Origin: Gymnopilus junonius
Taxonomy: Eukaryota; Basidiomycota; Agaricomycetes; Agaricales; Galerinaceae
NCBI GenBank assembly: GCA_015501075.1
Contig: JADNYJ010000094.1
Location: 1-64,000 of the forward strand
Direction of reading: 5' to 3'
Length of the DNA: 64,000 bases
Of the stretch, positions 32,539 through 60,755 are shown in pieces. Numbering within the stretch: position 1 is the first letter of the stretch; every line of letters begins with the position of its first letter. Under the pieces are notes generated by a model, which worked only from the letters and a program-made list of their open reading frames with translations, had not been told where the DNA came from and searched no databases. Position numbers and translations under genes: made by a program.

Positions 32539-32939
32539 TTGGGGAGGAGAATCCCCATTCCTGGATTCAAGGAGGAATATAGTTTGGAATCTCAACTTAC
32601 TCTATCAATTTTGCGGTCGAAAAGTTGCATCAAACTTTAAGCAAATGTATTGAAATGATCTATCGAAATACATCGAGGAATAAGATGGCCCATTTTTTGT
32701 TGGATTTCAACGAATTTCCCTCTTCTGAGACGCAAACCACACATCGATAAGAGTCTTCAACCTCGGATCATTTCTCTTTTTCAGCCAACTTTTCTTCAGA
32801 TCCGGAGTGACTCCTGCAGCTTGTATGTCCTTATTCATTATTCAAGCTCATCAAATTCTCCATCATTTTAACGTTTGTCGAACCGATCTTTTCTAACACC
32901 CGAAAGGTAGCTTTACATTCGGTCGCGTATCCTCTCATA
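32539..32939. other. Convergent 3' spacer
   Basis: Lies between two genes converging on it. A decayed duplicate of the methyltransferase 3' end may be present near 32700-32830: the plus-strand words GTCTTCAACCTCGGATC and CTTCAGATCCGGAGTGACTCC parallel GTCTTCA...CGGCTCC and TCCGGGGTGACCCC in the gene. Confidence 0.35.
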
Positions 32940-34224
32940 CTATAGAACTATAGAAGTCTGTCTTTTTTGAGCCCACGTAAACCAGATATCAGTCGTGGTC
33001 TTCAATTTCGGCTCCTGTCTTTCTTCCAGCCAAGCTTTCTTGATGTCCGGGGTGACCCCGGCAGATCGCATATCTTCACTAATGTTCATCAAGGTTTCCA
33101 CAACTTTGATGCTGGTTGACCTGACGGCGTTGGCCAATGCCCGCTCTCCGGGGGAGATCCGTGCTTGTTTGGTATCTTATCGTTAGAGTATGTGATAGCG
33201 TCGATGTAGACTCACGTACCTAGAAATTCAGGGTCTGTAGTTAAAATCATTTCTGCTTTCTTTACGTTTATTTCACTAAATGCGTCTGCGTCTTGCAAAA
33301 ACGCCCCAAGGCTCTCGCCGACTTTTGTGTCTAAGCCCTTCCTTTGCAACATCCCTGTGTATATTGCCTCTATTTTTTCTTGGACCGGACTGCCAGTATG
33401 TCCGATTATATGTCGGCCGAAGTCTTCAATAATGAGCCATCCTTGTGGCTTCAAAATGCGTGAAATTCTTTGAATGACTGAAGGGATTTCGGCCGGAGGT
33501 AACTGACACGCGTTAGATGGCTCCACACTCAACAACATATGGGAACTTACGTGGTACATTAGAAGACGCATATGAACAACATCGAAGCTGCTGTCCACAA
33601 AAGGAAGAGTGACGAGAACATCGCAATGTTGGTATTTCACGTTTGGAGGAAAAGGTCTACAAGACAAACACTGTTGAATTTTGTATGGTATTGAGGTGCA
33701 AGAGAGAACTTCGAACCTTTCTGGGAGAGGTACAATGTCAGCGGCGATTACCTCTGCATGCGGATATATGTTTGCGCTTCCAATACCCTTTGAAAATGGA
33801 TAAATAAGTAAGGGAGAACAAATATTTGTATGACGGAGAACTCACCATGCACCTGACCCCGCTCTGTTCAGGATTGAACATCAACGTTAAGGTAAGACAA
33901 TGTTCAAAGGAATGCCATTTTTACCCCAAATCGAGAATTTTTAAAGGATTGTCTAGAGGTGCGAAGGTTAGCTCGCCATTCATATACGCTGTAAATCCCC
34001 GATGAAGCTCATCGAGTCTTCATCGCTGCTGAATCAGCGATACGAAGTCGACCCATATCAAAGATCAAGTACCTTTCCCATTCTGAGCCGTTGAGGTTAT
34101 GATCCTGTGGATTTCAGGAGTTGTGAGCCTATATTTTTTAAACTTATATCTCTCTCACCTTGAATAGGTATTGCTTGCCAGTGGTGGCTGAATTGACTCC
34201 AGTTTGTCGGTCTGCTTCAGACAT
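32940..34224 (-). CDS. SAM-dependent methyltransferase (class I, UbiE/LaeA-like)
   Basis: Eight exons: 34224-34159, 34104-34073, 34017-33925, 33861-33846, 33787-33717, 33656-33551, 33502-33220, 33175-32940 (300 aa). The start MSEADRQTG leads to YLFKDHNLNGSEWERLDELH, the usual entry of fungal methyltransferases of this type. Motif I follows KILDLG, then YPHAEVIAADIVPLPER, the acidic loop binding SAM ribose (D in AADIV), DVLVTLPFVDSSFDVVHMRL and RISRILKPQGWLIIED. The 16-nt exon 4 is fixed by frame: the acceptor 2 bp upstream would break it, although it gives the more classical GAGSGAW. A TATATAT lies about 50 bp upstream. Its neighbours suggest it could modify the nearby secreted repeat peptide, but a soluble small-molecule substrate is equally possible. 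Confidence 0.85.
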
Positions 34225-34753
34225 TGGGATATGTTGACAGCCCAGCCGATAGTGTTCAGCTCACTATCGCACTATATATGTCTTTCCACATCCATTTCCC
34301 AAGGCTCCTTCTGTATGTCAGGAGAAATGGTACCGTCTGCTTCCTTCTGATCAATTCCTCATGAGCCTTCATCGAGGGAATTGATCATGAAGGTACTCAG
34401 GCTGCGAACTGGGATAGGGAATTGTTTTCCAGGATCACGAAAAACGTTATAAATAGGTCGGCCCGAAATTCGGCTACTCTCTTCCGAACTTTTCTCCCGA
34501 AATTTCTCTTCCAAGTTTTCCTCCTAGCTGACTCTGCTCAAACTGGCGTGAAACAAGGAAGTTTTCCACTTTCCATCTCTAAGAAAGGTGTCACTTTCCA
34601 TAGTGCCAAAGGAAGCCACTACGAACGTGCATTGCTCTGCTTTTCCGCCTTGGGTGAATTGTGGCCAAAGTTTGTGGTCTGGTCTATTACAGTGGTAACG
34701 TAGGTTCGACTGATTATGCTCGGACATCCATCATTGATAAGCCTACTATTATC
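34225..34753. other. Spacer between methyltransferase and UstYa-like gene
   Basis: Holds the methyltransferase promoter (TATATAT near 34273-34279). No gene seen; the 93-aa plus-strand frame here has no support. Confidence 0.45.
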
Positions 34754-35426
34754 CTAGACGTCCTTTCTGACTTGGATCATCTCGCCCCTCAATGAATTCC
34801 ATCCAACTACTATCGAGTCCCTTGTAAATGCATTCCCAATCCCAGCAAGCCATATCACTTCAGTTCTTTGCTTGTTGAAATCTCTCTCCAGGAAGTCACC
34901 CTCCTCCAGGCTGTCGACTGCTGAGCAGAGTAACGTCTGCCGCAAGTAGTCCATGCAATGCTTCATATGGTGCAGTGTGGCCTCTGGATCATCTCTGTTG
35001 AAGAGGCCTTTCTCTACCTCCCTGATGCAGTGAAGCTGGTGATAGAAAGTTACAAGGAATGCTCTGTGCTCGGGTCCCAGGATCACATGTCCAAGCCCTC
35101 GAGGATACCTCATCAGGCTATTCCATTCATTCGATGTGATTGGGTCACTCTTGTTTCCACTGTATCGTACAGATTCTTGGAGTGTTAGAGAGGCAGGGTT
35201 GAGCATTATAGAGGGATGGATAGATGGAAAATCAGTCCCAATATAGGTATAATATGCCTTTTGTTCTATGCAGCGCAATGGCAGTGAGTGATCTTCCCCT
35301 CCAAATGAAGTGCAGCTAGCATACTCATTTTTCTGATCCATGGAGCAGCTGTCTTTCCAATGTGCCAAACAGTCAGGAAACATTAGCCGCAACCAGAAGG
35401 ATCATCAGTAAATGCACATGAGCCAT
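34754..35426 (-). CDS. UstYa-like protein (DUF3328)
   Basis: The minus-strand frame from ATG 35383 to the stop at 34754 (about 209 aa) carries both UstYa hallmarks: the HxxHC motif in FYHQLHCIREVEKG and the second in HHMKHCMDYLRQTLLC. WNSLMRYPRG and ESVRYSG are also typical. In known fungal pathways UstYa-type proteins are membrane-anchored oxidases that cyclise or crosslink peptides from ribosomal precursors (ustiloxin, phomopsin, asperipin). Usually a transmembrane helix starts the protein. Here a hydrophobic start MAHVHLLMILLVAANV exists at 35426, but one base out of frame with the rest. Either a short unseen intron or a 1-nt indel separates them, so the gene may be damaged or mis-sequenced. 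Confidence 0.7.
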
Positions 35427-35803
35427 GGATGGAGAGATTGGCAACCGATTTGTCTTGGCTGGCATGGTTCATATTAAAGGTGGGGAGGCACTCTCCTTCG
35501 AGATTTATCTTACTTATCTGTCCTTTCATCTTGATTCGGGTGTGTTATTTTCAGGCAATCCCGGGTGACCACCAATATGATTGCTGTGACCGGCAAACCA
35601 TGTATATCGTCTATGGATACAAATATATCAAACTGGGGTTACTGAATCCGTCAACCTGTCGGGCAGTCATTCAAAGCCTCTGCCGAAATTTACTGGCAAG
35701 CATAATATGAGTCATATTTCGTGACAGAAAGTCTCAAGTGCTCCGCCGAAATTTGTTATCACTGTCCGACCACTTGTACATCTCAAAATTGTCTTCAATG
35801 TTT

Positions 35804-36193
35804 TCAAGGCCTCATTTGTTCAGACTCAGGCTCTTCAACGCGAGGCCTCATTTGCTCAGGCTCAGGCTCTTCAATACGAGGCCTCATTTGCTCGGGTTCA
35901 GGCTCAATTTCTGCTATAAGAAAACTTTAAAATCCGCGACGGAAGCAAAAGGGGTATAGGTACCTTGGACTATGTGGAGGAACATGCACGCACTGATACC
36001 ATCATCTGCCCTCTTGTCAACACATTCATGACGGAGCAATATGATGCTATCTCCGGAGCCAACTGCTCAGGATGACATTCAGATAGAGACTAAATGGAGA
36101 AAAAAAGCAATCCTCACTTGGACGAGCGGAAGCAGCAATGGTGCCTAGCAGAACAATTGAACAGGCAAGGCGGAGAAGGTTGACGAGTTGCAT
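35804..36193 (-). CDS. Candidate secreted repeat-peptide (RiPP-type) precursor
   Basis: Three exons: 36193-36118, 36062-35964, 35913-35804 (94 aa; both introns GT-AG, 55 and 50 nt, phases fit). Residues 1-23 (MQLVNLLRLACSIVLLGTIA then ASA) form a signal peptide. A short linker holds a dibasic KR (Kex2 site, residues 42-43). Residues 60-94 are repeats: EIEPEPEQMRPR, IEEPEPEQMRPR, VEEPESEQMRP, then stop. Signal + Kex2 site + tandem cores is the design of fungal RiPP precursors cut in the Golgi. Pro-Arg is a known Kex2 site in yeast K1 killer preprotoxin, so RPR could free 12-mers. Unlike most dikaritin cores, the repeat has no Tyr, Phe or Trp. It could instead be another Kex2-processed repeat protein. 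DUF3328 and methyltransferase genes flank it on the same strand. Confidence 0.6.
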
Positions 36194-36262
36194 ATCAGTG
36201 GTGGACAAGAACGAATTCAAGTGGTTACCAGGTTCCAATGGCATTGAAGTCTTTCGAGTGCC

Positions 36263-36270
36263 CTTATATA
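36263..36270 (-). promoter_or_regulatory. TATA box of the repeat-peptide gene
   Basis: TATATAAG on the minus strand, 70 bp upstream of the ATG at 36193. It supports transcription of this strand and the choice of 36193 rather than the in-frame ATG at 36244, which would lie only about 20 bp from the TATA. Confidence 0.5.
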
Positions 36271-37180: not shown

Positions 37181-37722
37181 ATGTCCCAACACAAGTGGTT
37201 CCTTTTCATGAAGAATGTGACCATCTTGATGATTTGTGTGCTCTGCATGCAGATTGCATTGCTCCTGTGGACACATAACTACAAGTCAACCACTGCAAGT
37301 ACTGGTAAGATTCATATGTTAATGACTTCATGCAAGCTTACTTTCTGGTTTTGATCACAGTTGGCAATTACTTTGAGACCTCACATTGAAAGCCCATCAC
37401 ACTTTGACTTTCATCCACCATGCATTATAAGCTAGAGAATACAAAAACCTCTTCAGATGATTTCTCAGCTTTACTTCCAAGTGGTGGACACATCATTTAT
37501 GTCAATGATGATCTTGGTATTCCTCAGGCCTACATGGTAACATTGTTCCATCAGATGAAATGCCTGGACATCATACAAAAATACTATGTTGCAGAAAGGC
37601 CAGTCAATCAAATGTTATCCCCCATTATCAGGCATTGTTTGAATTACCTAAAACAAACAATCCTTTGTCAGCCCTCTCTCAGATTGGAGTCGATACAAGG
37701 CCTGGATGGACATTCAGTATGA
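37181..37722 (+). pseudogene. Second UstYa-like (DUF3328) gene, decayed
   Basis: An ATG at 37181 begins MSQHKWFLFMKNVTILMICV followed by more hydrophobic residues, a membrane anchor typical of UstYa proteins, and ends at a GT donor after SZT-type sequence near 37304. After the acceptor near 37359 the frame meets TGA twice. The family frame resumes near 37420 with GIPQAYMVTLFHQMKCLDII and IIRHCLNYLKQTILC. The first motif is HQMKC instead of HxxHC, so a metal-binding/catalytic His is replaced by Lys. It is on the opposite strand to the 34754 homologue. CpG is nearly absent here. Confidence 0.6.
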
Positions 37723-38232: not shown

Positions 38233-39403
38233 CTCTTTCAAAAAATGATGTGCAGGCACTCATGATGGAAGTTCCAACCATGGGAACCACTGACTTTGTC
38301 ATGGATGGAAAGACACACCAAACCTGGTACAAAGTATTTGGCACTCTGCACACCATTAATTGTTCTACATGGAGGTCCAGGTCTTTCTCATGACTATATG
38401 TTGTTCATAAATTTTATAATGATAACTGCTATTATCAAGTGCTAACCTCTTTTTCACAGGCCCAATAGCATATTTTTCTATGAGTCCAAGTTTGCTTTTT
38501 CATTTATTCTTTTGACAATATAACTTACCAGGCAAACAGGATACCTGTCATTCTGTATGATCAATTAGGTTGTGGGAAATCCACCCATATTGTCAATGCT
38601 CTGCAGTCCTTCTGGTCGTTGAATTGTACATGGACAAGATTGAAAACCTACTTCACCATCTCAAAATATCTGGCGGGTATGATCTTTTAGGACATTCATA
38701 GGGAGGTTCATCAATGTGACATTTTTCTGTTTGATTGGGGGTTTAATTCAGACATCTAGAAATGTTGGCTGCTAATTTTGCAGCAGCCTGTAAGTCCCCA
38801 GGTCTTAGGTGTCTCATCTTAGCCAACTGTCCTTCTTCCAAAAAGCTGGCCATAGAAGGGACACTCAACAGATTAATTGAAAGATTCCTACCTGACTTCA
38901 TTGAGATGATCAAAAGGCACGAGGATGCTGGTGATCTCAGATCCCAGGAGTACAAGGATGCCATCATGCACTTCACCCAGAAATTTATTTGCACATTGGA
39001 CCTGTGGCCCACCAAACTGTTAGCATCATTTACAGAGTACAAGAAGGACCCATCTCCACATGAAGCTTTGTACATCTACATTTTGGCATATTCAAGTCAT
39101 TTCTTTTTTACTGCCTTCTGCAGGATGGGTGGCTACTTGCTCAAAACAATTGGTAATATGAAAGATTGTGACATTGCACCTATTCTCCATTCCCTGGTGG
39201 ATGAGATCCATGAAATCATTGTTAAGGCATTTTTTGAACATATCCCAAAAATCAAATGGGTTGAGTTTATCATAGCTCTCATTTAGCCCAATTGGAAGAA
39301 CCAGAGAGGTGCATCTTCTGAAGTCATGATACTCTGCTAGTATGCGACTGACCTCCTCATTTATCATAGATACTTTCAAGTTGTCACTGAATTTTTATCT
39401 TGA
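38233..39403 (+). pseudogene. Proline iminopeptidase-like alpha/beta-hydrolase, decayed
   Basis: Pieces of a proline-specific peptidase (peptidase S33 type) lie in order: GTTDFVMDGKTHQTWYKVFG, PLIVLHGGPGLSHDYM (oxyanion motif), IPVILYDQLGCGKSTH, YDLLGHS-stop-GGS (nucleophile elbow), RCLILANCPSSKKLAIEGTL, IERFLPDFIEMIKRHEDAG, VKAFFEHIPKIKWVEF, HLAQLEEPER and, after an intron, YFQVVTEFLS with TGA at about 39401. In the nucleophile elbow the Trp codon is TAG, right after the catalytic Ser. The frame also breaks near 38355 and by one base near 39266. Such enzymes remove N-terminal Pro from peptides. The link to the peptide cluster is only by position. Confidence 0.75.
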
Positions 39404-46625: not shown

Positions 46626-48194
46626 ATGAGCCAAAGGCAGAACTCCCGAGTCACAAGGGGAAGTGCCGGACCTAGCACCACCGTCTCCGAATCGACAAAA
46701 AATGATATCCTAAAGGACTCATGATTGAGGATCAAGGACAAAGAGGCAGCTAAGAGGTTTTTAGTTGTGAAAGAGCTAGTGCCAGAAGGTGAATGAATCA
46801 CTACTGCTTCACTGTCAACTGCTCTACTCTGGGCCACCATAGATAAAAGACTACTGACACACAATGATTGGATCGATATGATGAGGGCTGTTGCGATCAG
46901 CCTCGACAACCTACCGGCGGAAGAAGCGATGGAAGCAGTGACCACACACATGCAGAACCTCTTCGATGACCTGGCAGACAACCTGAAGAGGGACATCGGT
47001 AAAACTTTGGAGGACGGCAAACAGGCAGTGGCCGACAAGTTGACAGCACACAAATCTCAATACTACACACTGGCAATGGAAGAACTAGAGGAGATGGTAT
47101 GGCAGGAGGCCAATGCACTAAGACGACCAACGTACGCTGACGTCCTGAGGATGAAAGTAAATGGAAACAACAAAGGTGACAACATCCACACAGAAGTGCT
47201 CTCGAGGGAAAGCAAAAGGAATCGGCAGATCCTCATGGACATGGTCCCAGGAGTAGCAAGCGCGGTCACCAATTTAACCCCGATGGAAATTGTGGAGAAA
47301 GCCAACATCGCATGGGAGGCCTTACCAGACATGGACTTCAGTCACAGCAACTCTAGGTGGGACGAGCCCGAGCCAACATCAGACCACAAACCCAGCAACT
47401 CGAGGTTCATCATCGCCAGAGTTTTGAAGAATGGAGGAGTGATTTTGGAGATGTCAAATGAGGAAGGAGTAGAGTGGCTCAGCAGGGAGGATGCGAGGAG
47501 AGCTTTTGAAACACACTTCGGGCCCGCAACCATTAAGGATAGACAGTACTCGCTCATCATCAAATTCATCTCAACCAGCCTCAAGAACATTCTCAGCGAC
47601 TGAGTCAGAAAGATAGAGGAGTACAACGAGATCCAAAGGAACAAGATAGAACAGATCAGATGGATGCGAGATCCATCGAAGAGCTGGAACCCAACCCAGA
47701 CATTTGCACATGCCATCCTTACAACAAGAGATAGAGAAGTAGCGAATACCATCATTAAAGATAGACTAATCATTGAAGGCAGCAGGTACAAGGCAAGGAA
47801 GCTCGAGGAGGAGCCCAGGTGCTGCTACAAGTGCCAGGTGATCAACGCGAACCACAAAGCCGCAGAATGCCCTGAGGACAAGGTGTGCGCAAATTGCTGC
47901 TCAAGACAACACCCCACAGGACAGTGCGACAAGAGCCAAACTGAACATTCCTGTGCAAGCTGCAGAAGAGCACAACGTGAAGATGTACGACACGCCACCT
48001 GGAGCAGGAAATGCCCCATCTATTTGGAGCAACATGAGAAGCTACAAGACAAAATCCCTGAGAATCACTATATCTACTACCTGGACCGCGATGTTGAATG
48101 GACCTGGAAGATGAAAGACAATGAATTCGAAAACAACACGATGCAGGAGAGACAGAACGGAAACCTCAACACCCAGAGATATGAATTTAACTGA
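46626..48194 (+). pseudogene. LINE ORF1 (gag-like, zinc knuckles)
   Basis: One frame from ATG 46626 to TAA/TGA near 48194, interrupted only by three TGA codons (46722-46724, 46794-46796, 47601-47603). The N-terminal half is helical (ITTASLSTALLWATIDKRL, coiled AVADKLTAHKSQYY). The C-terminal half has zinc knuckle clusters CCYKCQVINANHKAAEC, CANCCSRQHPTGQC and CASCRR, typical of nucleic-acid chaperone ORF1 proteins in the Tad/CR1-jockey groups. Product would bind LINE RNA. Confidence 0.85.
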
Positions 48195-48658
48195 CAACGC
48201 CGATGACAGGAGATGGAGGATCAACAACCCGGCAGGCGACAATGTAGACCAAGAGAAGACTCCTACTGGGCCCCACAAGAAGAATACACCATGACCAATA
48301 CTACAACAGAACCCCGGTCCCGAGCCTCTCAGCAGGGCGCCAGCTCACAAGTCAGACAGACAGAAGACCCGAGGCGCAGGCCAGCCCCAACACCCAGCAG
48401 GACCCCCTCTAGAACCCCCTCCAGAGCCCCCTCCAGGGGATGAGTTTTCGCCAGATGGCACAGCATAAGCAGAGTGAGAAACACTAACAACAGGGACTCC
48501 CCACGAGAAGGCCCAGCCTTAGGAGGCACACAGCGCACTTTACCAACTGATTGGATAGCAACGCAACGTAGCCGCGAAGGCAACCACGAGATGCATCGAC
48601 CGACAGCATCAGCAACCACCAACGGACTTAGATGAACAACACGAGGACATGACCTTTT

Positions 48659-51600
48659 ATGAAGATATGGCAGCAAAATTCGAGGAAATCCCTAAAAGCC
48701 CAGCTCGAGACCCTACATGACATACCACCAGACACTGACCTCATTTGCATACAGGAACCGTACTTGTACAAAAGTGGGCTCACGGCAGCCACCGCAGGAT
48801 GGCAGGTGGTATACCCCCACAAACATCGTCTTACGAATGGACAGGGCAGATCGAGATCGGTAATGTTGATAAACCAGAAAATTTTTACTAACACTTGGGA
48901 GAAGATTTACATAGATTCGACAGACATCATAGCAATTCGGATCACTCACGAGGACCGGGCCATTGAAGTATACAACATCTACATTGACTGCACACACTCC
49001 GACGCACTCATGGTATTATGACACCACCTCCTGGACAGAGAATGAAGGATAGAAGAATGAGGTGACATGGACAACTTCATCGGAGATGTGTGGCTAGGAG
49101 ACTTCAACCAACACCACCCGCTGTGGGAACCCGATGAAAACGAATGACTATTCACAAGACAGGAGACGGAGAAGACTGAGCCACTACTACAACTAATCGC
49201 AGACTACAACATGGAACTAGCCCTGCTGAAAGGCATAACAACTATAATAAACTCACATGGAAATCTGACATGACCTGACAATGTATTCATCTCACAGGAA
49301 CTCAACACATACCTAGCTGAATGTCAGGTATTCGAAGAACACAAGCCGGAAATGACGGACCACTTTCCAATTGTCACAACGATAGAGTTCCCCATCACCA
49401 ACACGGTCGAGAGGCCTGCCAGAAACTGGAGAGAGATGGACTGGGATGACTTCGGAGAAGAGCTGACAGCCCAACTCGCTGCCATCCCTGAACCCAGAGA
49501 GTTACAAACAGCAGACGAAATCGATGAGGCCCTGGAACTCATAGAAGCAGCAGTCCTCAAAACCGCAGACTTAGTGGTCCCCAGGAAGCGACCAACACCC
49601 TACTCGAGATGATGGTGGACCAAAGAGCTAAAGAAGGCAAGGGACAAAGCCAGAAAAGCCGCGAGACGAGCCCGTGAGCAGAGAAGCTTCCCAGACCACC
49701 CAGCGCATGAAGAACACAGATGAGCCAGGAATGACTACACCAATCTTCTCAAGAAAACAAAACAGCAGCACTGGGAAGACTGGATCGAGGACCTCGACAA
49801 CACGACAATGTGGAACGCTCACCAGTACTGTGTACATCAGAGCACCAGCAACCGATGGGGGAAAGACCCGAATCCCAGCCCTCAAAATGACGGATGCGCA
49901 GGGCAATGTGATTGAGACCAGGGACAACCAAGAGAAGAGCTGCATCCTTCACAGGGCCTTCTTCTTCAAGCCGCCAGCTGACCTACAGATACCAGCGAAC
50001 CCAAATTACCCACCGGCCGCCTTTCCCTTCAGGGAAATCACAAATGAGCATGCAGCACGAGGTGCAAAATGGCTAAGTCCCTATAAAGCCCCTGGTCTGA
50101 ACAATATATCAAATTCAGTACTGACACATTGCACAGATCAACTAGTCCCATATCTGGGCCCCATCTACTGAGCCACCTTCAGAGCAAAACACTATCCAGG
50201 CAAATGGAAGAAGTACAGAACCGTTGTCCTCAGAAAACCCAGTAGAGCCGACTACAAGATCGCAAGCTCATACCGACCGATAGCCCTACTCAACACCTTC
50301 ACCAAGCACTGCTCAGCATGTGTAAAGGACCTCATGGAACACCCCATGGAATGCTTAGGTCTGCTGCCAAACAGGCAATTCGGAGGATGCCCAGGATGCA
50401 CAACTAGGGTTGCCGAAGTTCAGTTCAGTTCAGTTCTTTGGCCAATTTTCTGAACTGAGAACTGAACTTCCCAGTTCAGTTCAGTTCTCAGTTCGAACTG
50501 GTTTGAACTGTTCTGAACTGGCAATGGCCAAAACATAAAATTTCCTTTCATCTGAGGCTTTGAAATAGTAGACAGACTACAGATATGTCTATCTTCTATC
50601 ATTAGACATTGCTATATGTACAAAACAGTATATTATTTACTGATTTTTCAAGCATTGGGTAGTGTCATGTAGCTCATGTCCTCACACAATAAATAAAATC
50701 ATTTTAAGAAATTATTTTATGTCATCTAGTGCTTGGGATTAGTGCTAAGGAGTTCTCTATACATTATGGGAATCTAATGGTAATTTTTTGATGCCAAAAT
50801 AATCACTTTTGAAGGTCAAAATTTGATAATTTTAACCACACCCAACAAACAGTTCAGTTCAGTTCGAACTGACTGGCCATAGGCCGAACTGAGAACCAGA
50901 ACTGCATCTGAACTGCAGTTCAGTTCAGCCAGTTCAGGTTCAAACTGTCAGTTCTGAACTGAACTTCGGCAACCCTATGCACAACAACTGACTCACTGCA
51001 TATGTTAATGAAATTCACCAAGGATGCCTGGTGACGAGGTCAAGAGGTAGCAGCCATCTTCATGGATGTCAAAGTGGCCTTCCCAACGACAGTCATCCCG
51101 AGACTCATGCACAACATGTGGCAATATGGAATCCCAGAGGAATACACACAATGGATAGCCCACAAGGCCGAGGGACATGAAACCATGCTCACTTTCGATG
51201 ACTTCCAATCAGAGCCATTTCCGGTAAACAACGGACTGGACCAAGGATGCAACTTATCACCATTTTTATACAGATTCTACAATGCAGACCAGATCAAAGC
51301 CTCAGTAGGCCGCAAACACGAGCTTGCCACCAACTATGCAGACGACGCCATTGTGGCGGTAGCCGGCAAAGACAGCGAAGAGGCCACCAAGAGGATAGTG
51401 ACCCTCTTCCACAGAAGGGGCAGCCCACTAACATGGGCTAAGACACATTTTTGCACATACGAGTATCACAAATTTGCTTATCTCAAGCTAACTAGGAAGA
51501 AAATACCGGATCCTGCAAACCCCAGAAAGCGGATACAACAACCGAGGTCCACCATTCAGCTCGACGGAAAAGACATCACCTCCACCGACAGCCACAAGTT

Positions 51601-53245
51601 CTTGGGCATTACCCTCGACAGTGAGCTCTGCTTCAAAAAGCACATCCAACACATGCTGGAAAAGGACACCAAAATTGTCATCAGCATAAGAAGACTGTCC
51701 AAGATGGCCAAAGGTTTGCAGGGTGAATACGCGAGAAGGATGTATCTGGCCAGCACCATTCCCAGTATGCTATATGCAGCAGATGTATGGTGTCCACCAC
51801 CTCCAAGGAAGGCAGACGGAAAATGCCCCAGGGGAATGAATGGAGCCATAGGAAAGATGGAATCCATCCAGAGGAAAGCAGCGATACAGGCCATGGGAGC
51901 GCTGAGAACCACTCCAACTGATCTCCTCTTTGCACATACTGACCTTCTCCCCATGCAGGAACAAATAGTCAAGATCTGCGAGAATGCTGCAATGCACATG
52001 GCGACACTCCCGAAAATGCACCCATTATATGAAGAAATCAAAAGATCGACACTGAGAATGCCAAAAGCACACCCTTCGCTGCTTCACATCATAATGAACA
52101 TGAACAAACTGATGAGACAGGGAATGGAACACATTGACATGCTTTACAAGGACCCAGACTGGGAACCCCCCATAAGAATTACCATCGCCGGTACAAGAAA
52201 AGAAGCAGCACAGCAAGATCAGGATGACAACAGTGACATTAGAGTATACACGGATGGATCGGGGCAAGGGGGAAAGATAGGAGCAGCAGCAGTTTTGATG
52301 GAGGAAGGGCAAAGGGAGAAAGTGGCACGACGACACCTAGGACCTTCAACCAGACACATTGTTTTTGACGGGGAGTGCATTGGACAGATACTCGGATTGC
52401 AGCTATTAGAAGAAAGGGTACTGGAACTCAACACACCACACACAACTGCCAGCATCACCGTCAACAACCAGGCATCATTGAAACGACACCTCCAGTGAAA
52501 ACCGCAGCCGGGAGCGCACCTTATTGAGGAGATACAGAGGATACATGACAGGATCACGAGAAACCATCCAAATGTCAGCATCAAGTACAGATGGGTACCG
52601 GGACACGAAGGCATCCAAGGTAGCGAGAGGGTGGATGAAGAGGCAAAGAGAGCAGCAGAAGGGATGCAGGAGAACAAGAAGGGAAACCGAGACGCACTCA
52701 GAAACACTGTCCCAACCAGCAAAGCAGCGGTATGTCAGGAGTGCAGAAGTAGACAAAAAGAGAGATGGAAGAAGGCCTTCCGAGAGTCACCCAGACATAA
52801 AAGGATGATCACAATCAACAACACCACCCCATCCTCTAAATACCACCACCTCTGCTGAAAACTCAAGCTACCAAGACGAAATGCCAGTCTCCTCACACAA
52901 CTATGCACCGGACACATCCCGCTACAGACGTACCTACACCAGTTCAACCTAGCGGAGTCACCAACCTGTCAATACTGCGGAACAGAACTGGAAACAGTCA
53001 TCCACTACCTCAAGACTTGTCAACATTTCCGCATGCAATGACAACAGCTCAGAAAAGATTTAGGAGCAGGGAAAGAGATAAGCCTCAAACTCCTGGCGGA
53101 AGAGAAAGCGATATGACCTCTATTCAAATTCATAAACAGTTCAAGATGTTTTAAGGGATCACACGGGGACGTAGAACTGCTGGCAACACAAGACGAAGAA
53201 GGAGACGAAGACGAAAATCACGAAAGACAACAGTGGACTGCATAG
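48659..53245 (+). pseudogene. LINE ORF2 (endonuclease, reverse transcriptase, RNase H)
   Basis: Order: APE-type endonuclease (MKIWQQNSRKSLKAQ, ICIQEPYLYKSG, WLGDFNQHHPLWEP, TDHFPIVT), linker, RT (SPYKAPGLNNISNSV, SYRPIALLNTFTK, IFMDVKVAFP, NNGLDQGCNLSPFLY, YADDAIV at 51334 with both catalytic Asp, FLGITLD), RNase H (VYTDGSGQGGKIGAAAV, FDGECIGQILGLQLLEE, VPGHEGIQGSERVDEEAK), then a CX2C-H-C knuckle (CQYCGTELETVIHYLKTC). The frame is cut by at least thirteen TGA codons, a 1-nt frameshift near 49830, and the MITE at 50405-50977. RNase H has Asn (VNNQASL) where DxQA-type Asp is usual. No TAA or TAG occurs in the reconstructed frame before the end. Confidence 0.9.
50397..50985. mobile_element. hAT-like MITE inside the LINE
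   Basis: Element 50405-50977 (573 bp) flanked by TGCACAAC at 50397-50404 and 50978-50985. Ends read TAGGGTTGCCGAAGTTCAG inward on both sides. Subterminal parts are dense in GTTCA/TGAAC words. No coding capacity. Removing it with one 8-mer restores the LINE frame exactly between GCTT and TDSLHML. An 8-bp duplication and a TAGGGTTG end fit the hAT superfamily. Confidence 0.9.
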
Positions 53246-53259
53246 ATAGTTTTTGTACA

Positions 53260-53505
53260 CAACTTCTCACTTCTTTTTGTAGTTTTTTTCTTTTTCTTTT
53301 TCTTCCTTTCTTTCTTTCTCTTCTCTTTTTCGTTCCTTGTTTCCTTTCTCTCTCCCTCTTTTCTTTTCTCTCCCCTCCCCCTTCATGCTTTTTCCTCTTC
53401 TTTTTCTCACCTTCTCCTTTTTCCTTGCCTTCTCCTCCCCTCTTCTCTTGTTCTCTCTCTGGAAGTTCACACACATCTGTATATAGCAAACAGCATCTTT
53501 CTCAC

Positions 53506-53543
<38 letters not shown>

Positions 53544-53560
53544 CCTTTTCTTTAACGTAT
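53260..53560 (+). repeat. Pyrimidine-rich tract in LINE 3' UTR
   Basis: About 300 nt almost purely C/T on the plus strand, including a CT microsatellite at about 53509-53540. The lysine/arginine/glutamate-rich minus-strand frames here are composition artefacts. Confidence 0.85.
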
Positions 53561-53778
53561 TTTAATTCACAGTAATTCTGTACACCTTACCTTATACTTA
53601 CATGCAGTACTAACATGGCACGCATGATGTGCCTGCGCATCTCTCCAAGTAGGCCCACCTCTTAACTGTCGAGTACAAAGTATATAGAACTGGACGACAA
53701 AGTAGTACACCATAGATAGAAGTCCGACATAAGGCAAGCGCCTCAAAGGACAGTAAATGGGAAAAAAAAAAAAAAAAA

Positions 53779-53791
53779 CAGTATAGCTGAA
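53779..53791. repeat. Right 13-bp target duplication of the LINE
   Basis: CAGTATAGCTGAA immediately after 17 A residues; matches 46431-46443. Confidence 0.9.
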
Positions 53792-54019
53792 TTGCCCAGA
53801 GAATTCCACCCGGACTCCAGTGGACTCCAGAAGAAATCCGAGTGGACTCCAAAATTCCACCTTGAGTACAGCTGGAAATGATCAAGGTTGGCCAGAGTCC
53901 ACCCGGAGTCCACCTAGAGCATACTCATTTAGCCAATATTAATAATTGGTAATAGGTACTCCAGTGGGAATTCCAAGGGAATCACTTCTATTTATTTAAT
54001 TTTAATTTTAATTGATAAA

Positions 54020-54110
54020 GAAAAAAAAAGCACACAGTGGCAGCATTGAACCCATGACTTCATGGCACATAATCAGCAGTGCTTACCGTTGCACCATCAG
54101 ACTGTAGTTA
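54020..54110 (-). ncRNA. tRNA-like sequence (SINE head or tRNA relic)
   Basis: The minus strand reads TCTGATGGTGCAACGGTAAG with a perfect GTGC/GCAC D-arm stem (A-box-like, plus 54080-54102), then CATGGGTTCAATGC (B-box-like GGTTCAA, plus 54043-54053), then a run of nine T (plus 54021-54029) that could end Pol III transcription. The T-arm does not pair well and no clean anticodon arm is visible, so a tRNA-derived SINE or relic is more likely than a working tRNA. Confidence 0.4.
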
Positions 54111-54149
54111 GGGTGTAAGCATCAATCGATCATATAGGCGAAATTTATT

Positions 54150-56733
54150 GCCGCGGACAATTGCCTCGGAATGGAATTCGAACTCCGACGGGCGATTCCG
54201 GAATAGGACGGAAACAGCCATGCCATCACTTGTTTCCTCCCACCATGCCCAACCACCACCGCCGCCTTCCTTTCTCCCCACACGTCGCTCCCTCCTGCCC
54301 CACAATCACCATGCTGCCATGCCCCCCCAACTCATGACAACAACCCACCAGGAGGCAACCGCCTCACAAATGCCAGGGGTCCGGAGCAGACCAAGAAATC
54401 GAACCAGCCATGAAACGGGCATGACGTGGCATGAAGAACCAGGCGGATCGTGATGATGAAGAAGAGGAGGGTGGGGAGGAGGAGGAGGAGGAGGAGGAGG
54501 AGGGAGATCCCGAGCTGATGAGCTCGCCGATCTCGAAGATCGCGCCATGACCCCGCGGAAAGGGACTGGCAAAGGTGGTAAGAAGGGCAAGGCAGCCAAA
54601 AGGTGAGTACCTGCTGCCATTTTTTTTTTCTTAAACTAATTCTACATTGTTTTAAGCAGGAAAACAGCTATAGACCGTGCTCGCGAGGATGCGGCTGCCG
54701 TTACCCCCTAGCTTCCCAGCTGAAGCCGTGAGTACCACCCTGCCCCCCCCCCTTTTTTTTTAATCAACTAATTTATTAATATCATCTTCTTCTAGCACTG
54801 AGCGCATGCTCGAAAACAGCAGCATCAGCGTCGCCCCGCCGCCAGTCCATCTGGCTCCGCCAAGAAGCCAGCACCCACATCCAACCCCACTCTGGACCCC
54901 TCATTGAGGAGGCGAAGGGACAGCAACAGCGGCAACGACACCAACAATGACAATGGCAGCAAGGATGACAACAGCAAGGGCGACAATGACAAGGACAGAG
55001 AAAATGGCGGTGACCAAGAAAACGGCAACAACGGCAACAACGGCGTGGTGCGCGAGCACCCCAAGCACCTCGCCATCATAGCCCATCCCCTCGCCATCAT
55101 AGCCCATCCCCTCGCCACCGCAGCCCATCCCCTCACCGCCGCAGCCCATCCCTCGCCACCACAGCCCATCCCCTTGCCCAGACAATATTCACGGGAGGGA
55201 CAAAACACCCACCCCTGCCCGTGAATGTGAGGGTCGAGAAAGGAGGCCCAGTGGTCCTCACGACGTAGTGCCTCCTGTCGCTGAGGATCACCATCATCGA
55301 GAGCAGACTCCACCCCATCGCTCACAGTCTGAGCCCCGTACTCCTCCATCCAAGCACATTCCTGATGAGGGTATTAATTTATTTACATTATTATTTACTT
55401 TTTATATATTAATTAATGTGATAGATGTTAAAATGGCGAGCCCACCTGCCCGTTCTGCTACTGCAAAAGAACATATACCAGCATATGGGTCTTCTGCTCT
55501 TACGGTGGTGTTTTGCGAGGACGAGCCTCTGGGAATCATCCCAATATAGCAGATGTTCCTGCTGCCATTGCTGACTTTCATCAAGAACCAGGCTATGCTG
55601 CTCGAGAGATGGGCAATATCCATGTTTATATTTCCAATGATGATCCAGCGAACATTGATGTTATGTGATGAAGAGCACATTTTCTATCAAGGTTCAAGAC
55701 ATCGATAGCTTTTCAACAATCCAGGAGGTGGCACAACGGGCTGGAAGAGATTATTCTCCTGTTCGCAGTATGTCTTAGATTTAGTCTATCCATAAATTAT
55801 AACTAACTTTTTGCAGACAAGAAATATCATCTATTTGTGGCTGAGGATTCTGAGTGGATTATCAAAGGACATTACGAGAATATTGTGAAAGAGAAACCAA
55901 CGGATGAAGATTTTGTTGAATGGACCAAGAATGTTGATAAAAATGTTCTTCATCTTCTTTGCATAAGTTTTACCTTCAATTAAGTTCATGTTTTGAACTT
56001 ACTTTGTATCATATTAGACCACCTTTGATCCTAGTCAACCAATGTCAGCTGGATTTCCTCCCCGATTTGGCTCCAGCATGGATCTCACTCTAGCTGTTCG
56101 ATCACTCCTGTTGGTCTTTCGCGTTTGTCTATCGGAGTGCAGGAAGATGCATCTCCTTCTCCAAGCCCATCTGAGGATCCTTCTGGGCCTTTGGATATTG
56201 TCAAGACACTGTTCATGCAAGAATTCAGTATCTCTGAGAGTGTTATGGCTCAGAAGTGGCGGGGCTTACGTTTTGCCTGGACCAAGTACTTGGCTTGTAA
56301 AAAGACACTTCATGCTGCTAAGAACCTCGTCGACTCTGGATCTTGGCCTGTTTCCCTCCCTCATTACAGTGAACATTTGATTGTTGAGCTTTTCATTGGC
56401 AAGACTACTTGGTATGCAAACTATGCCCCCCCTTTGACAAAGTCAATGAAAATCATCCAGAGATGGCTGAATGGCTCGAGCTTATTGATGCAAGTCAGGA
56501 GGATGATAAACGTGTTTGGGGATTTTTGAAGCAGGCATATTCGTTCTTGGAGCTTAGTGATTGGATCAAACATCGGGAGAAGGAGAAACAGCAGGAGAAG
56601 GAGGAGAGGGAAAGAAAGGAGAAGGAGAAGGAAAAAAAAAGAGATGGAAGAGATAAGAGGAGAAGTCGGTCTAGGTCAGAATCTCCTCAAGGAGGCAAAG
56701 GCCATTCTAAAGGGAAGCAGTGTCGGAGGTAGG
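54150..56733 (+). CDS. KDZ element accessory gene region (multi-exon, incomplete)
   Basis: Several exon-like pieces lie in order: an acidic Glu run (GGA repeat at 54466-54507), ADELADLEDRAMTPRKGTGK and KGGKKGKAAKR joined over a GT-AG intron (about 54604-54658) to KTAIDRAREDAAAV; a Pro-rich minisatellite part; then from about 56160 a good frame GPLDIVKTLFMQEFSISESV, KWRGLRFAWTKYLACKKTLH, SLPHYSEHLIVELFIGKTTW. At 56424-56431 a run of seven C sits where eight would continue into FDKVNENHPEMAEWLELIDA and an RS/KE-rich tail ending SKGKQCRR at 56730. So there is a 1-nt frameshift or read error. Function unknown; such proteins travel with CxC5 genes. Exact exons not resolved. Confidence 0.4.
55069..55173 (+). 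repeat. 21-bp minisatellite, about five copies
   Basis: Unit CTCGCCATCATAGCCCATCCC at 55069, repeated with drift (CACCGCAG, ACCGCCGCAG, CACCACAG variants). Copy four is one base shorter. Encodes a Pro/Ile/Ser repeat on the plus strand or Gly-rich on the minus. Confidence 0.85.
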
Positions 56734-56869
56734 CTGGGCTGGATATTTTGATTTGAAATTGCTTTATATGTGCTGATTGATGATTTGAAAATCTTTTGTG
56801 TACTTGTAGCTTCATTTTGGTTTTGCTTGGTCTCATTCTTGTGTACTTGGCTTCATCAACTATTCAGCC

Positions 56870-59212
56870 TTGCCATGTGATCTATTATGCCTTGCTTTTG
56901 CTTTGTTTTCTGTCTATGCTACAGTGCCATTGTACATCAGAGTTATAGCTTTGGTTTTGTTCTTTCCACTTGTTGAAGCTGCACCTGCAAAACAACAATT
57001 TCCAGACATATCATTTAAAGCTTTCAACAAATTTGTGGAAAGAACATTTAGCTCTGATGTGTCTTTGGCTACAGTGTTAGCAGTCTTATTTTCTTTAACA
57101 GAAAATACGGACTTGCTCAACCTTCATGCTAGACAGCGACACCCAGAATTTAGTGGCGAAAACAACACACTAGCAACTGGATGGATACGTGCATTATCAC
57201 GGGCTTTGATTCATCAGCTTGATGATAGAATTGAGACTCTTTTTTTCCCTGGAGAGTATCCACATACTCGGATTAAGCAAGCAACAGCTCTATCATCAAA
57301 ACTTGATGACTTTGTAGAGTTGCTTTCTTTAACACCATATGATTGGAACAATACACTAGGCAAAAAATTATTGCCAGTATCATATGACTCAATTCGTGGA
57401 GTGCAAGTAATTTGCCCCAGTACAATGTTTTGCTTAAACCGGAAATGTCAGCCCAGGGCTCTTCTTCAAACAACTCGGACTTCTCAGATACCTTTGGTTA
57501 CTTTGCTCAAAGAGGATGTCATTTATAAAGATGTTCCTGTCTTGATTGGGAAATGCACCACTTGTGATACAACATATCATGCTGATCATGAAAGATTCAA
57601 AGACCACTTTGGTATTTGGAACAACTGCTATCTGAACTCTGCCCAATTTCTTAAAGTTGGTCAATCAACATGGGTTGATCGAAAATTTGGCCATGCTGTT
57701 CTAAGTGGAATCTACAATTTTCATGCTTCAGCTTCAGCATATACACAATTTTGGAATGACTGTGCTTCTAACAGTGGTGTTGATTTTATGCTCACTCGAT
57801 GCCATACTTGGCAGACATTTATTCAAGAGTCAATCCGAATAGTGTCAAGTACAAAGAAGATTGATCTTGAATTAAAAGAGAACTTGAATATCAATGAAGT
57901 CACAAAAGAAGCATATGCAATTCTAGGAAATGCTGGAATAATTGAACTGGGTCTTAAACATTCATGTTCACAGTGTCATCAACCATATAAAGAAGTTGCA
58001 GATCTTATTGGAAATGAAGATCCAGCTGCAGTGCTTGGTGCTGATGGTAATAGTGCTGTACCTTCATTGGTTGGAGAATATGCTGCTCAGTCTGCCCATG
58101 AAACTACTCAAGCAAGGCAACAAGCAAGAATCTGAGCAGAGAGAATTGGAAATAATGATGAAATGAATGTTGACTATGATGATGTCAATATGATTGTGTT
58201 AGATGGAATTGTAATGGGGCCTGTGGTAAATATTATTTAAAAACTAGCTCAAAGCATAGGCTAATTTATTTACTAGCATTGTGCTCATCCGGGATGCACT
58301 AAAGATGTGAGAAATGCTCGAGGCGGAGCATTCTGTTATGATCATGAAAGAGCCTTTAAGGACCGGTGCCATATTCGTGACTGTCCGAATGATAACATAA
58401 CTGGAACTCTTGCATGCCAGCATCACCAAAGTGCTTGGAGAAAACATAAACTTGAACATAGCCGGTCAAGCTATGCTGGTATGCGACGGTTACTACAAAG
58501 GCCTGAGGAAAATTTGCCATGGCAGCCTAGAACAGAAAGGTCCAACCAACCACATGATAATGATGATGATGATGAACCACCTCCTAGATCACACTATTTC
58601 AATTCTTCAAGATTTTACTGTGTTGAAACTATTTGTGCACCATGTGGAGTGGTCATTGCATGGACCAAGTTCGATAAATCTGAATCACCAACTAAAATAT
58701 TGAACTTCTTGAAATCTGTATATCCTACTCAAGATTCACGTCCAAATTATATTTGCATTGACAAGGCCTGCAAAGTACTTCGGACAAGTATTGCAAATCG
58801 ATCCTGGGATACATGGCAGCAAACTAGTCGCTTTATTGTTGATTCATACCACTATATCAACCACCGCACTACAGACTATTTGTGTCGCAAATGGTGTAAT
58901 CCTGCTCCATTAGATGGATCAGCACCTAATTTGGTGAAAGTGGCCAAGAATAAAGAAGGGAATGACTATCTACAAAGAGCTTTTAATACTCAGGCATGCG
59001 AGCAGCTAAATTCCTGGCTTGGTGGATTTGAAGGAATTTTAAAGCGGATGACGATTGGAAACTTCGATTGGCTTTTGCATACAATGCTTCTATATCACAC
59101 TCAGCAAGTTATTAAAAAGCAAGCCAAGAAACAAAAACCAGTTCAGATCGAAGATCCAGATGAAGATGATGATGATAATGATGATAATCCGATTCAGTAT
59201 TGGGATGACTGA
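56870..59212 (+). pseudogene. CxC5/CxC6 cysteine-cluster protein associated with KDZ transposases
   Basis: Exon 1 (about 56870-58225) and exon 2 (58277-59212) join over a 51-nt intron. Exon 1 holds the CxC5-like part: SYDSIRGVQVICPSTMFCLN, CQPRALLQTTRTSQIP, IGKCTTCDTTYHADHERF. Exon 2 starts HCAHPGCTKDVRNARGGAFC and CHIRDCPNDNITGTLACQHH (CxC6-like zinc cluster), then a transposase-like core with FYCVETICAPCGVVIAW, YICIDKACKVLRTS, FIVDSYHYINHRTTDYLC and ACEQLNSWLGGFEGILKRMT, and an acidic Asp tail. These proteins are spread in basidiomycete genomes with Kyakuja-Dileera-Zisupton elements. One in-frame TGA (58133-58135, QQARI-stop-AERIG) breaks it. No ATG is seen at the very start; an upstream exon is likely. 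Confidence 0.8.
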
Positions 59213-59529
59213 TAAATATTCAGCAAAAGAAGTATACCATAGTGTAATTTTAGGTGTTTGAAAGTCTAGGAAAAGAAGTGTACCATAGTGTAATTTGATA
59301 TGTTGTATTGTCAAATATAGTCTGTGATATTCTATTGGAATCCACCTGGACTCCACCTGGACTCTAGTCTGACCCATGACTGATCTCTAGCCTTGAAGCA
59401 ATATTGGTGGACTCCAGGAGTTAGATAGCAAAATACTAACTGTGGTGTCATGAGCCAGCTGGACTCCAGTAGGATCCATTGGAATCAGTGGAGTCCACCT
59501 GGACTCTGTGGACCAGTGTAAAGTACTGC

Positions 59530-59537
59530 CAATGCAC
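59530..59537. repeat. Right 8-bp target duplication of the KDZ-type element
   Basis: CAATGCAC; matches 46211-46218. Confidence 0.85.
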
Positions 59538-60541
59538 CCACATTATTCATTTTCTTAACCTAGGACATTCTACTCTCCAAATTGAAGGAATGACTGGTTG
59601 TTCTACTGGCTCTATATCCCATATCCACAACAAATTCTGCCCTGACCTTCCCAAGTCCACTGGTGGTCATCCTCGCAAGCTTTCACCATCCAATGTCCAA
59701 TATGCTCTATGCCTTATCACTTCTTGCAAGGCTGAAAATGCTGTTGGGATTGCCAAAACCTTAAAAGACATCATTAATGAGCCTCTCTCATCAAAGACAG
59801 TCCACAGGGCACTTCAGGACACAGGATTAAAGCCTGTTGTCAAGAAAAAATGGCCTTTTCTCTCCAAATGACATAAGAGGGAATGTATGGACTTTGCAAT
59901 GGCTCACCTCCACTGGACTGTTGAGGACTGGAAGAGGGTGGTTTACACAGATGAGACCAAAGTCAATTGTTTGGGGTCAGATTGGAGGAAATGGGTGTGG
60001 AAAATGCTAGGGGAAGCACTTTCTGATAGGCTGGTGGAAGGCACAGTCAAGTTTGCAGGAGGAAACTTGATGTTCTGGGGCTGTATGTTTTGGGAAGGAG
60101 TTGGATATGGGACCAAGATTTATGGGAGGATGGATGCTGACCTTTATGTGTCTATCCTGGAAGATGAACTTCAGCAAAGTCTTGAATATTTCAACAAAAA
60201 ACCTGAAGATGTCATTTTTCAGCAAGACAATGACCCCAAGCACAAGAGTAAAAAGGCAATGAAGTGGCTAGAAGACAGTGGTTTGGAAGTTATGATATGG
60301 CCACCTCAATCAGCAGACCTCAACACCTTTGGGTTTACCTCAAGGCTAGGCTTGCAGAGTATAAAACCCAGCCTTCTAGCATAGCAGAACTTTGGGAGAG
60401 GACACAGAAGGTGTGGAATGAAATTCCAGCTTCTGTATGTCAGAATTTGATAGAAAGTATGCCAAGGAGGGTTGCAGCTGTTGCAAAGGCCAGGGGAGGC
60501 TATACCAAGTACTAAATACTCTAAATAGTATATAATTTTCA

Positions 60542-60753
60542 AGAGGGACAAAACCATTACAGTGTACTTGTGCTTTTAAATAATTTGTAGTGTGGGAAGA
60601 AATTATGCTTACATAATCATTTATATATGTTTGGGTAGAAATACCTGGGGCTATCTACATTTAAAATTTCAAGGTTTTAGCTTGCTTGGTTCCTAAGTTA
60701 TTCCTGGTTTACTTCAAATGTATAAAACATTGTAATGGTTTTGTCCCTCACTG
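60542..60753. repeat. Right terminal inverted repeat of the Tc1 element
   Basis: 212 bp, inverted match to 45852-46063, followed by TA. Confidence 0.9.
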
Positions 60754-60755
60754 TA

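What the first reader, a model, noticed from the sequence alone, without database searches (positions are those of the whole stretch)
32940..36193. Candidate ribosomal-peptide (RiPP) cluster with a new repeat core in a basidiomycete
Seen in sequence: on one strand within 3.3 kb lie a methyltransferase, a DUF3328/UstYa-like protein with both histidine motifs, and a three-exon gene for a 94-aa secreted peptide with a KR site and the repeats EIEPEPEQMRPR, IEEPEPEQMRPR, VEEPESEQMRP. A TATA box lies 70 bp upstream. Known: dikaritin-type clusters (ustiloxin, phomopsin, asperipin) and epichloecyclin clusters combine exactly a Kex2-cut repeat precursor with DUF3328 proteins and sometimes a methyltransferase. 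Inference: this is a related but undescribed system. The core lacks Tyr, Phe and Trp, so if UstYa acts on it the chemistry would be unlike known members.
Basis: partly seen in the sequence, partly recalled or inferred. Interest (0 to 1): 0.88.

Follow-up and report, generated by a model that had tools for sequence, protein, structure and literature searches.

The report
Mushroom repeat-peptide gene, decaying UstYa cluster
A mushroom gene for a small secreted protein built of repeated acidic peptides sits beside a gene of the UstYa family, which modifies such peptides in other fungi; several genes around it look damaged, but the same genome holds four other pairs of this sort, so it is best read as one worn member of a larger, probably under-counted family.

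Summary
Observation largely confirmed. A secreted-peptide gene with three 12-residue repeats (36193-35804, -) lies about 0.5 kb from a UstYa/DUF3328 gene carrying both histidine motifs and 1.6 kb from a methyltransferase. The organism is Gymnopilus junonius (100% protein match). The public gene model splices exons 1-2 onto UstYa and, as I read it, leaves the repeats in a 383-nt intron, hiding the precursor. Splicing is not unique (83, 84, 93 or 94 aa). The cluster looks damaged: the conserved UstYa C-terminus continues in another frame, the methyltransferase reading that keeps its cofactor motif has an out-of-frame joint, and a second UstYa plus an iminopeptidase-like gene at 37.4-39.3 kb are degenerate. 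No relative of the repeat was found in the genome or the protein database.

Support for the RiPP reading comes from the same genome: 5 of 14 UstYa loci scanned, this one included, carry a signal-peptide-plus-repeat gene. One (C68) has sixteen 39-nt micro-exons, one core each. Only 1 of the 5 has dibasic sites between three or more repeats, so surveys with that rule should miss the other four. The window gene alone has no aromatic residue in its repeats; whether UstYa acts on it is unproven.

The parts
36261..36270 (-). TATA-like box TATATAAGGG
   Evidence: read; starts 77 bp before the ATG at 36193
36118..36193 (-). P1 exon 1: signal peptide MQLVNLLRLACSIVLLGTIAASARP, ends in phase 1 at donor GTGAGG
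   Evidence: same exon in public protein P0001
35964..36062 (-). P1 exon 2 (leader with KR); ends at 35994 with donor GTGCGT or at 35964 with donor GTACCT
   Evidence: the part to ADDGI is in P0001
35804..35913 (-). P1 exon 3: three 12-residue repeats and stop; starts at 35913 or 35910 by acceptor
   Evidence: lies inside an intron of the public model (read by eye)
34861..35401 (-). UstYa/DUF3328 gene, part with HQLHC and HMKHC; membrane-anchor exon not placed with certainty
   Evidence: PF11807 38.8 bits; alignment A1; 100% to P0001
34752..34859 (-). conserved UstYa C-terminus (CWDWE...) in a different frame from the main frame: frame break
32940..34224 (-). methyltransferase, eight exons read by eye; the reading that keeps the cofactor motif is out of frame with canonical sites at the joint of exons 4 and 5
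   Evidence: Pfam Methyltransf_25 49.2 bits on the joined reading, exon flanks
32707..32832 (-). second, partial copy of the methyltransferase 3' end
   Evidence: read by eye
37408..37722 (+). second UstYa, degenerate: HQMKC and IIRHC in place of the two HxxHC motifs, no C-terminal CxDW
   Evidence: PF11807 34.5 bits; alignment A1
38266..39286 (+). proline-iminopeptidase-like pseudogene, stop codon right after GHS
   Evidence: TIGR01250 37.5 bits for 38747-39283, below its cut-off of 167.65; relatives lie between UstYa genes on C36 and C423

Best explanation
The locus is a UstYa-type repeat-peptide cluster of the mushroom Gymnopilus junonius in partial decay. Exons within 36193-35804 encode a secreted precursor: the signal peptide takes it into the ER (inferred), a kexin removes the leader after KR (inferred), and the repeat block is cut after the single Arg that ends each unit. 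The last unit stops just before that Arg, as expected if Arg is a cutting residue and not part of the product, which would give acidic 11-mers such as IEEPEPEQMRP (inferred). A membrane-bound UstYa would then oxidise or cross-link the peptide, with a methyltransferase possibly adding methyl groups (inferred from family membership only). Shown: the reading frame, the repeats, their position, both enzyme families, and four further UstYa-linked repeat genes in the genome. Not shown: transcription of exon 3, cutting, modification, or that the damaged enzyme genes still work.
For: Repeat and frame: in codons 3-12 of the three units 4 of 5 variable columns are third positions and none is a second position (the stop codon was left out). 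UstYa about 0.5 kb away on the same strand. In the same genome 5 of 14 scanned UstYa loci have a signal-peptide-plus-repeat gene: window; C301 (SDAVFLR, 4 copies, all differences within that heptapeptide synonymous); C708 (AxAMFKR type; publicly annotated as CPB84DRAFT_1809158); C36 with its second copy C423 (two units ending in RR); C68 (EEFTDDVQSRYGR type, 16 copies). All 5 signal-peptide exons, with donors chosen by eye, end in phase 1. Base-shuffled sequence gave no row in 3 runs of the first scan and a top score of 39 in 1 run of the second, against 107, 100, 98, 93 and 45 for the five genes.
Against: No homologue of P1 found. No dibasic site between repeats. The public model uses exons 1-2 for UstYa, and RNA-seq was used in annotating the published genome set (PMC8480192, passage). 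Repeats 2 and 3 alone vary at positions 1, 2, 3 in 2, 0 and 1 columns, so the codon pattern is weak; the P3 units vary at all three positions (4, 5, 6 columns). Both window UstYa copies lack in frame the CxDW tail that the other 13 of 15 aligned proteins keep. Methyltransferase joint out of frame. P1 units align with those of P2-P5 no better than shuffles. P1 is the only one of the five without an aromatic residue in its repeats. The scan also gave low-complexity rows scoring up to 151, set aside by eye.
Confidence: 0.55

Rival explanations
1. The public model is right: exons 1-2 are the N-terminus of the UstYa protein and the repeat is intron sequence with no product.
For: P0001 reads exactly so, with exon 1 at 100% identity and exon 2 present. 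No transcript of the repeat exon was seen here; no RNA data were at hand.
Against: It needs a 383-nt intron (read by eye) where the 15 introns between the C68 micro-exons are 49-64 nt, plus an extra exon that the tblastn did not place and that is outside the UstYa match. Related UstYa proteins with a longer N-terminus (P0004, P0007, P0010) start with their own membrane helix (by eye). The supposed intron holds an in-frame repeat that ends in a stop, and four other UstYa loci have a separate repeat gene.
Confidence: 0.15
2. A secreted repeat peptide that stays linear: cut by kexins and trimmed, but not touched by UstYa, which is a neighbour in decay. (Overlaps in part with the best explanation.)
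For: Peptides from repeat precursors of four agaricomycete mushrooms were found linear and minimally modified (PMC9769878, abstract and discussion read). The P1 units lack Tyr, Phe and Trp and UstYa has a frame break here. Only 103 of 1680 basidiomycete repeat precursors in one survey had a DUF3328 neighbour (PMC7329392, Table 1).
Against: UstYa lies directly beside it, as near four other repeat genes of this genome; the repeats have no dibasic sites.
Confidence: 0.3
3. A dead cluster: precursor and enzymes are relics of one that worked in an ancestor. (Overlaps in part with the best explanation.)
For: Frame problems in UstYa and methyltransferase, stop and lost motifs in the second UstYa and the iminopeptidase-like gene, no second copy of P1 in the genome.
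Against: The precursor frame itself is intact with usable splice sites. The assembly is not free of indels: the C652 copy of the C301 precursor is frame-shifted while the C301 copy is clean, so single breaks may be errors.
Confidence: 0.3
4. Chance: a short open stretch with a DNA repeat, no gene.
For: The same stretch is also an open repeat on the other strand.
Against: Signal peptide, phase-1 introns, repeat frame and end of the last unit agree; exon 1 and part of exon 2 are in a public protein; no row in 3 shuffles.
Confidence: 0.07

Closest known systems
Dikaritins (ustiloxins, phomopsins, asperipin-2a)
   Same: Secreted multi-core precursor beside UstYa/DUF3328 genes; tailoring enzymes nearby.
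   Different: Known products are from ascomycetes; cores separated by KR, RR or KK (PMC9769878, passage) and closed through Tyr (PMC7329392 and PMC9233826, passages). Here: mushroom, no aromatic residue in the repeats, single Arg between units, enzyme genes damaged, no product known.
Epichloecyclins (GigA)
   Same: Imperfect repeats in one secreted precursor, kexin processing proposed.
   Different: Cyclic nonapeptides with a proposed Ile-Tyr link (PMC9233826, passage); no Tyr in P1.
KEX2-processed repeat proteins (KEPs)
   Same: Signal peptide, repeats, processing by kexins proposed.
   Different: The survey of Umemura 2020 asks for at least 3 repeats of 8 or more residues between KR, KK, RK or RR (PMC7329392, section on detection read). 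P1 has no dibasic pair between repeats.

Membership tests
Dikaritin / UstYa-type RiPP | UstYa (PF11807) gene beside the precursor with both HxxHC motifs | tested here: met
   38.8 bits against 25, motifs HQLHC and HMKHC; but with a frame break before the conserved C-terminus
Dikaritin / UstYa-type RiPP | Secretory signal peptide and repeated cores in the precursor | tested here: met
   Hydrophobic N-terminal stretch by a hydrophobicity rule, not SignalP; three repeats
Dikaritin / UstYa-type RiPP | Dibasic kexin sites between cores | tested here: not met
   Only dibasic pair is KR at residue 42 in the leader
Dikaritin / UstYa-type RiPP | Tyr (or other aromatic) in the core as cross-link partner | tested here: not met
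   No Y, F or W in the repeats
Dikaritin / UstYa-type RiPP | Modified cyclic product | not testable with these tools
   Needs mass spectrometry
KEX2-processed repeat protein (Umemura criteria) | At least 3 repeats of 8 or more residues between dibasic sites | tested here: not met
   against the methods text
UstYa protein family (the enzyme) | PF11807 above curated cut-off, two HxxHC motifs, intact frame | tested here: inconclusive
   First two met; frame broken at the C-terminus, N-terminal anchor unplaced

The most novel reading that the evidence does not exclude
Mushrooms hold a branch of UstYa-type RiPPs whose precursors differ from the ascomycete ones: cores are mostly separated by single Arg residues instead of dibasic sites (3 of 5 loci here), can be carried one per phase-1 exon (2 of 5 loci; sixteen exons of 39 nt at C68), and turn over so fast that the window units align with none of the other four types better than shuffles. 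Surveys that ask for dibasic sites and trust gene models miss most of them, so the reported rarity of DUF3328-linked precursors in Basidiomycota (103 of 1680, against 1647 of 5372 in Ascomycota) is in part a detection effect. The window gene is an aromatic-free offshoot of this branch.
Probability: 0.35. Interest if true: 0.75.

Novelty: new variant of a known kind. Interest (0 to 1): 0.5.

Why it matters
If the five loci are what they look like, one mushroom genome carries at least five UstYa-linked peptide precursors where a published survey, with a stricter definition, averages about one per three basidiomycete strains (103 in 317; PMC7329392 Table 1). That makes a direct test possible: rescan basidiomycete genomes around UstYa genes without asking for dibasic sites or for correct gene models. 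The micro-exon array would also be an unusual way to copy, swap and perhaps splice out single peptide cores. The window gene itself matters mainly as a case where the annotation hides a precursor inside an intron.

Tried and rejected
Search for P1 elsewhere: one place only, itself, in the genome; 8 candidates in the protein database, none with E up to 10. The length rule of that search hides longer fused models such as P0001.

Kinship of P1 with the other precursors: unit alignments no better than shuffles (shuffles as good: P5 542, P3 1304, P2 1468, P4 772, each of 2000). The five are similar in plan, not shown to be related in sequence.

Kinship of UstYa loci: the best match of the window UstYa in the genome is at C301 (42%), the locus with the SDAVFLR precursor; but proteins of other fungi are closer (69% P0002, 61% Sphaerobolus stellatus P0003), so this link was not used.

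Structure search of the UstYa alignment: 0 hits in solved structures at E up to 1. No structure was predicted; it would not settle the question.

Kex2 cutting after Pro-Arg: I recall such a case in a yeast precursor, but the passages I read (PMC8999023) speak only of Lys-Arg for Kex2, so it stays recalled.

Introns inside the repeats of the Epichloe gigA gene: recalled as a possible precedent for the micro-exon array; the passages read (PMC6374014) do not settle it.

Set aside by eye in the scan: low-complexity rows (L031, window 51-56 kb, L018), a hydrophobic repeat on C92 (L040, score 111, not excluded as a gene), antisense readings of C708, and UstYa's own two motifs (L019, L023). The shuffles were of single bases and do not copy low-complexity stretches. 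The P4 row scored 45, close to the control maximum of 39; it is kept because its three exons read in frame to a stop with RR in both units and its repeat DNA is also on C423.

The yardstick (0.026 expected against 5 seen, from 5.30 per genome in PMC7329392 and an assumed 20 kb for each of 14 loci; the stretches really scanned vary in length) uses a stricter published definition than mine and is only a rough guide.
Full report
What is there. On the minus strand, 36193-35804, an ATG opens a 25-residue hydrophobic leader (MQLVNLLRLACSIVLLGTIAASARP), followed by a donor in phase 1, a short second exon with the sequence VDKRADDGI, and an exon that encodes EIEPEPEQMRPR, IEEPEPEQMRPR and VEEPESEQMRP and then stops. 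I enumerated GT-AG pairs within length limits: 41 two-intron models keep the repeats in frame and no one-intron model does. With the first acceptor used by the public protein, four models remain, of 83, 84, 93 and 94 residues. The DNA repeat (36 nt, 2.8 copies) has the highest tandem-repeat score of 21 rows in the window. Among codons 3-12 of the three units 4 of 5 variable columns are third positions, none second; but units 2 and 3 compared alone vary in 2, 0 and 1 columns at positions 1, 2 and 3. The codon pattern agrees with a coding repeat and is weak.

Which organism. The UstYa reading frame matches, at 100% over the query, a 278-aa protein of Gymnopilus junonius, CPB84DRAFT_1749885. A genome of this species was published among 14 Agaricomycetes sequenced de novo, with RNA-seq used to improve annotation (PMC8480192, abstract in the listing and passages); G000 is presumably that assembly, since contig C708 has the length (14,625) given for the contig of P0019. 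The public protein begins with exons 1 and 2 of the precursor and continues into UstYa, so in the public model the repeats lie in an intron that I read by eye as 35993-35611, 383 nt. Either that model is right and the repeat has no product, or the model is a fusion that hides the precursor. I favour the second: the 15 introns between the C68 micro-exons are 49-64 nt, three related UstYa proteins with a longer N-terminus start with their own membrane helix (P0004, P0007, P0010), and separate repeat genes lie near UstYa at four other loci.

The enzymes. UstYa 35401-34754 passes its Pfam cut-off (38.8 against 25 bits) and keeps both histidine motifs. In alignment A1, 13 of 15 proteins have a CxDW tail; the two window copies do not. 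The tail of the first copy is present but in another frame, 34859-34752. The stretch upstream that looks like a membrane anchor has stops in its frame. The methyltransferase reads well as eight exons (Methyltransf_25 49.2 bits on the joined reading against 25.2 for the open frame alone), but the joint of that reading at the cofactor motif is not in frame with canonical sites, and a partial second copy of its 3' end follows at 32832-32707. Its 3 matches at E up to 1e-10 in the genome are its own exons. On the plus strand 37408-37722 is a second UstYa with both motifs damaged, and 38266-39286 an iminopeptidase-like gene with a stop right after its GHS motif. Relatives of the latter sit between UstYa genes on C36 and C423, and also on C235 and C832, where one search lists no UstYa. 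On C36 the order is UstYa, alpha/beta hydrolase of this type, a second alpha/beta hydrolase, UstYa. So the window looks like a UstYa cluster in decay, with the caution that this assembly has indel errors: the C652 copy of another precursor is frame-shifted, the C301 copy not.

The rest of the genome. PF11807 gives 42 exon matches in G000 (a lower bound). I fetched the surroundings of most places, in stretches of uneven length; with apparent second copies merged by eye (C36/C423, C244/C12, C301/C652; C215 and one C4 place may be a further pair) 14 loci were scanned and three places were not. Scans for a signal-peptide-like start followed by repeats, plus reading of C36, gave five genes. P1 is the window gene. 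P2, C301: SDAVFLR four times, every difference inside the heptapeptide synonymous. P3, C708: five AxAMF(K)-type units, mostly with KR, public protein CPB84DRAFT_1809158; its units vary at all codon positions. P4, C36: two units ending in RR, one per exon, 90 aa. P5, C68: a signal-peptide exon and sixteen exons of exactly 39 nt, each one copy of EEFTDDVQSRYGR or a close variant, introns 49-64 nt with GT and AG ends; joined they read through in one frame. I did not place any exon between the signal peptide and the first unit of P5, nor its last exon. All five first exons, with donors chosen by eye, end in phase 1. The nearest UstYa match lies about 0.5 kb (P1), 5 kb (P2), 2.5 kb (P3), 0.7 kb (P4) and 1.6 kb (P5) away (positions).

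How it most likely works. Signal peptide to the ER, kexin cut at KR in the leader, cuts after the Arg of each unit, trimming, then oxidation by UstYa and perhaps methylation. All steps after translation are inferred. Two features of the sequence bear on the cutting: the last P1 unit ends just before the Arg, and the last P3 unit ends just before its own Arg. Three of five precursors (P1, P2, P5) have no dibasic pair between units, apart from one RK in P5. Coprinopsis cinerea and other agaricomycetes have three kex2 genes (PMC9769878, discussion read), so a kexin with a taste for single Arg is a possible cutter; this is a guess.

Against the known. Umemura 2020 found 1680 repeat precursors in 317 basidiomycete strains, 103 with a DUF3328 neighbour (PMC7329392 Table 1, section read), and asked for at least three repeats between dibasic sites in annotated proteins (section read). 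By that rule, as I apply it, P1, P2 and P5 fail for lack of dibasic sites and P4 for having two repeats; P3 may pass. In the main text of that paper Gymnopilus is named only in a type without DUF3328 (passages). Le Marquer 2019 likewise scanned protein catalogues for sites of the KR, RR, KK kind (PMC6339444, passages). Vogt 2022 found linear, minimally modified peptides in four agaricomycetes (PMC9769878, abstract). Pleurotus has 16 UstYa-like genes called probably dikaritin-related (PMC8893723, passage). I saw no paper on a Gymnopilus UstYa peptide or a one-core-per-exon precursor in the listings, which cover only open-licence papers; one search returned mostly unrelated papers, and the lichen survey PMC12048977 was seen in listings only. 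So I claim no priority.

Verdict. The window gene is probably a real precursor of the UstYa-linked type, worn and perhaps dead, with no aromatic residue in its repeats. Its claim to unusual chemistry is unproven. The finding gains most of its weight from the four sister loci.

Noticed in passing
L027 (G000 C68) 4977-3215, minus strand: Precursor gene with a signal-peptide exon and sixteen 39-nt micro-exons in phase 1, each encoding one EEFTDDVQSRYGR-type unit, introns 49-64 nt, about 1.6 kb from UstYa matches at C68:208606-210989.
   Followed up: partly
L025 (G000 C301) 1283-1632, plus strand: Precursor with four SDAVFLR units whose differences are all synonymous; UstYa about 5 and 7 kb away; frame-shifted second copy on C652.
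   Followed up: yes
L017 (G000 C708) 6117-6611, plus strand: Precursor with five AxAMFKR-type units, public protein CPB84DRAFT_1809158; UstYa about 2.5 kb away.
   Followed up: yes
L018-L019 (G000 C36:58028-66500): Cluster UstYa, iminopeptidase-like gene, second alpha/beta hydrolase, UstYa, and a 90-aa two-unit precursor with RR sites; second copy on C423.
   Followed up: partly
L024 7212-8221 and L025 6556-6930 (G000 C301): Open frames on either side of the SDAVFLR precursor that look like multi-pass membrane proteins, without a Pfam match.
   Followed up: no
window 46797-62962: Mobile-element remains: reverse transcriptase (51035-52495), CxC5 and CxC6 domains linked to KDZ transposases (56810-59209), DDE endonuclease fragment just under its cut-off (59872-60381).
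   Followed up: no
L040 (G000 C92:48000-57900) 1743-2400, plus strand: Long 30-residue hydrophobic repeat (PVSDSFDFDFDLLSPS...) about 3 kb from a UstYa match; looks low in complexity, not judged.
   Followed up: no
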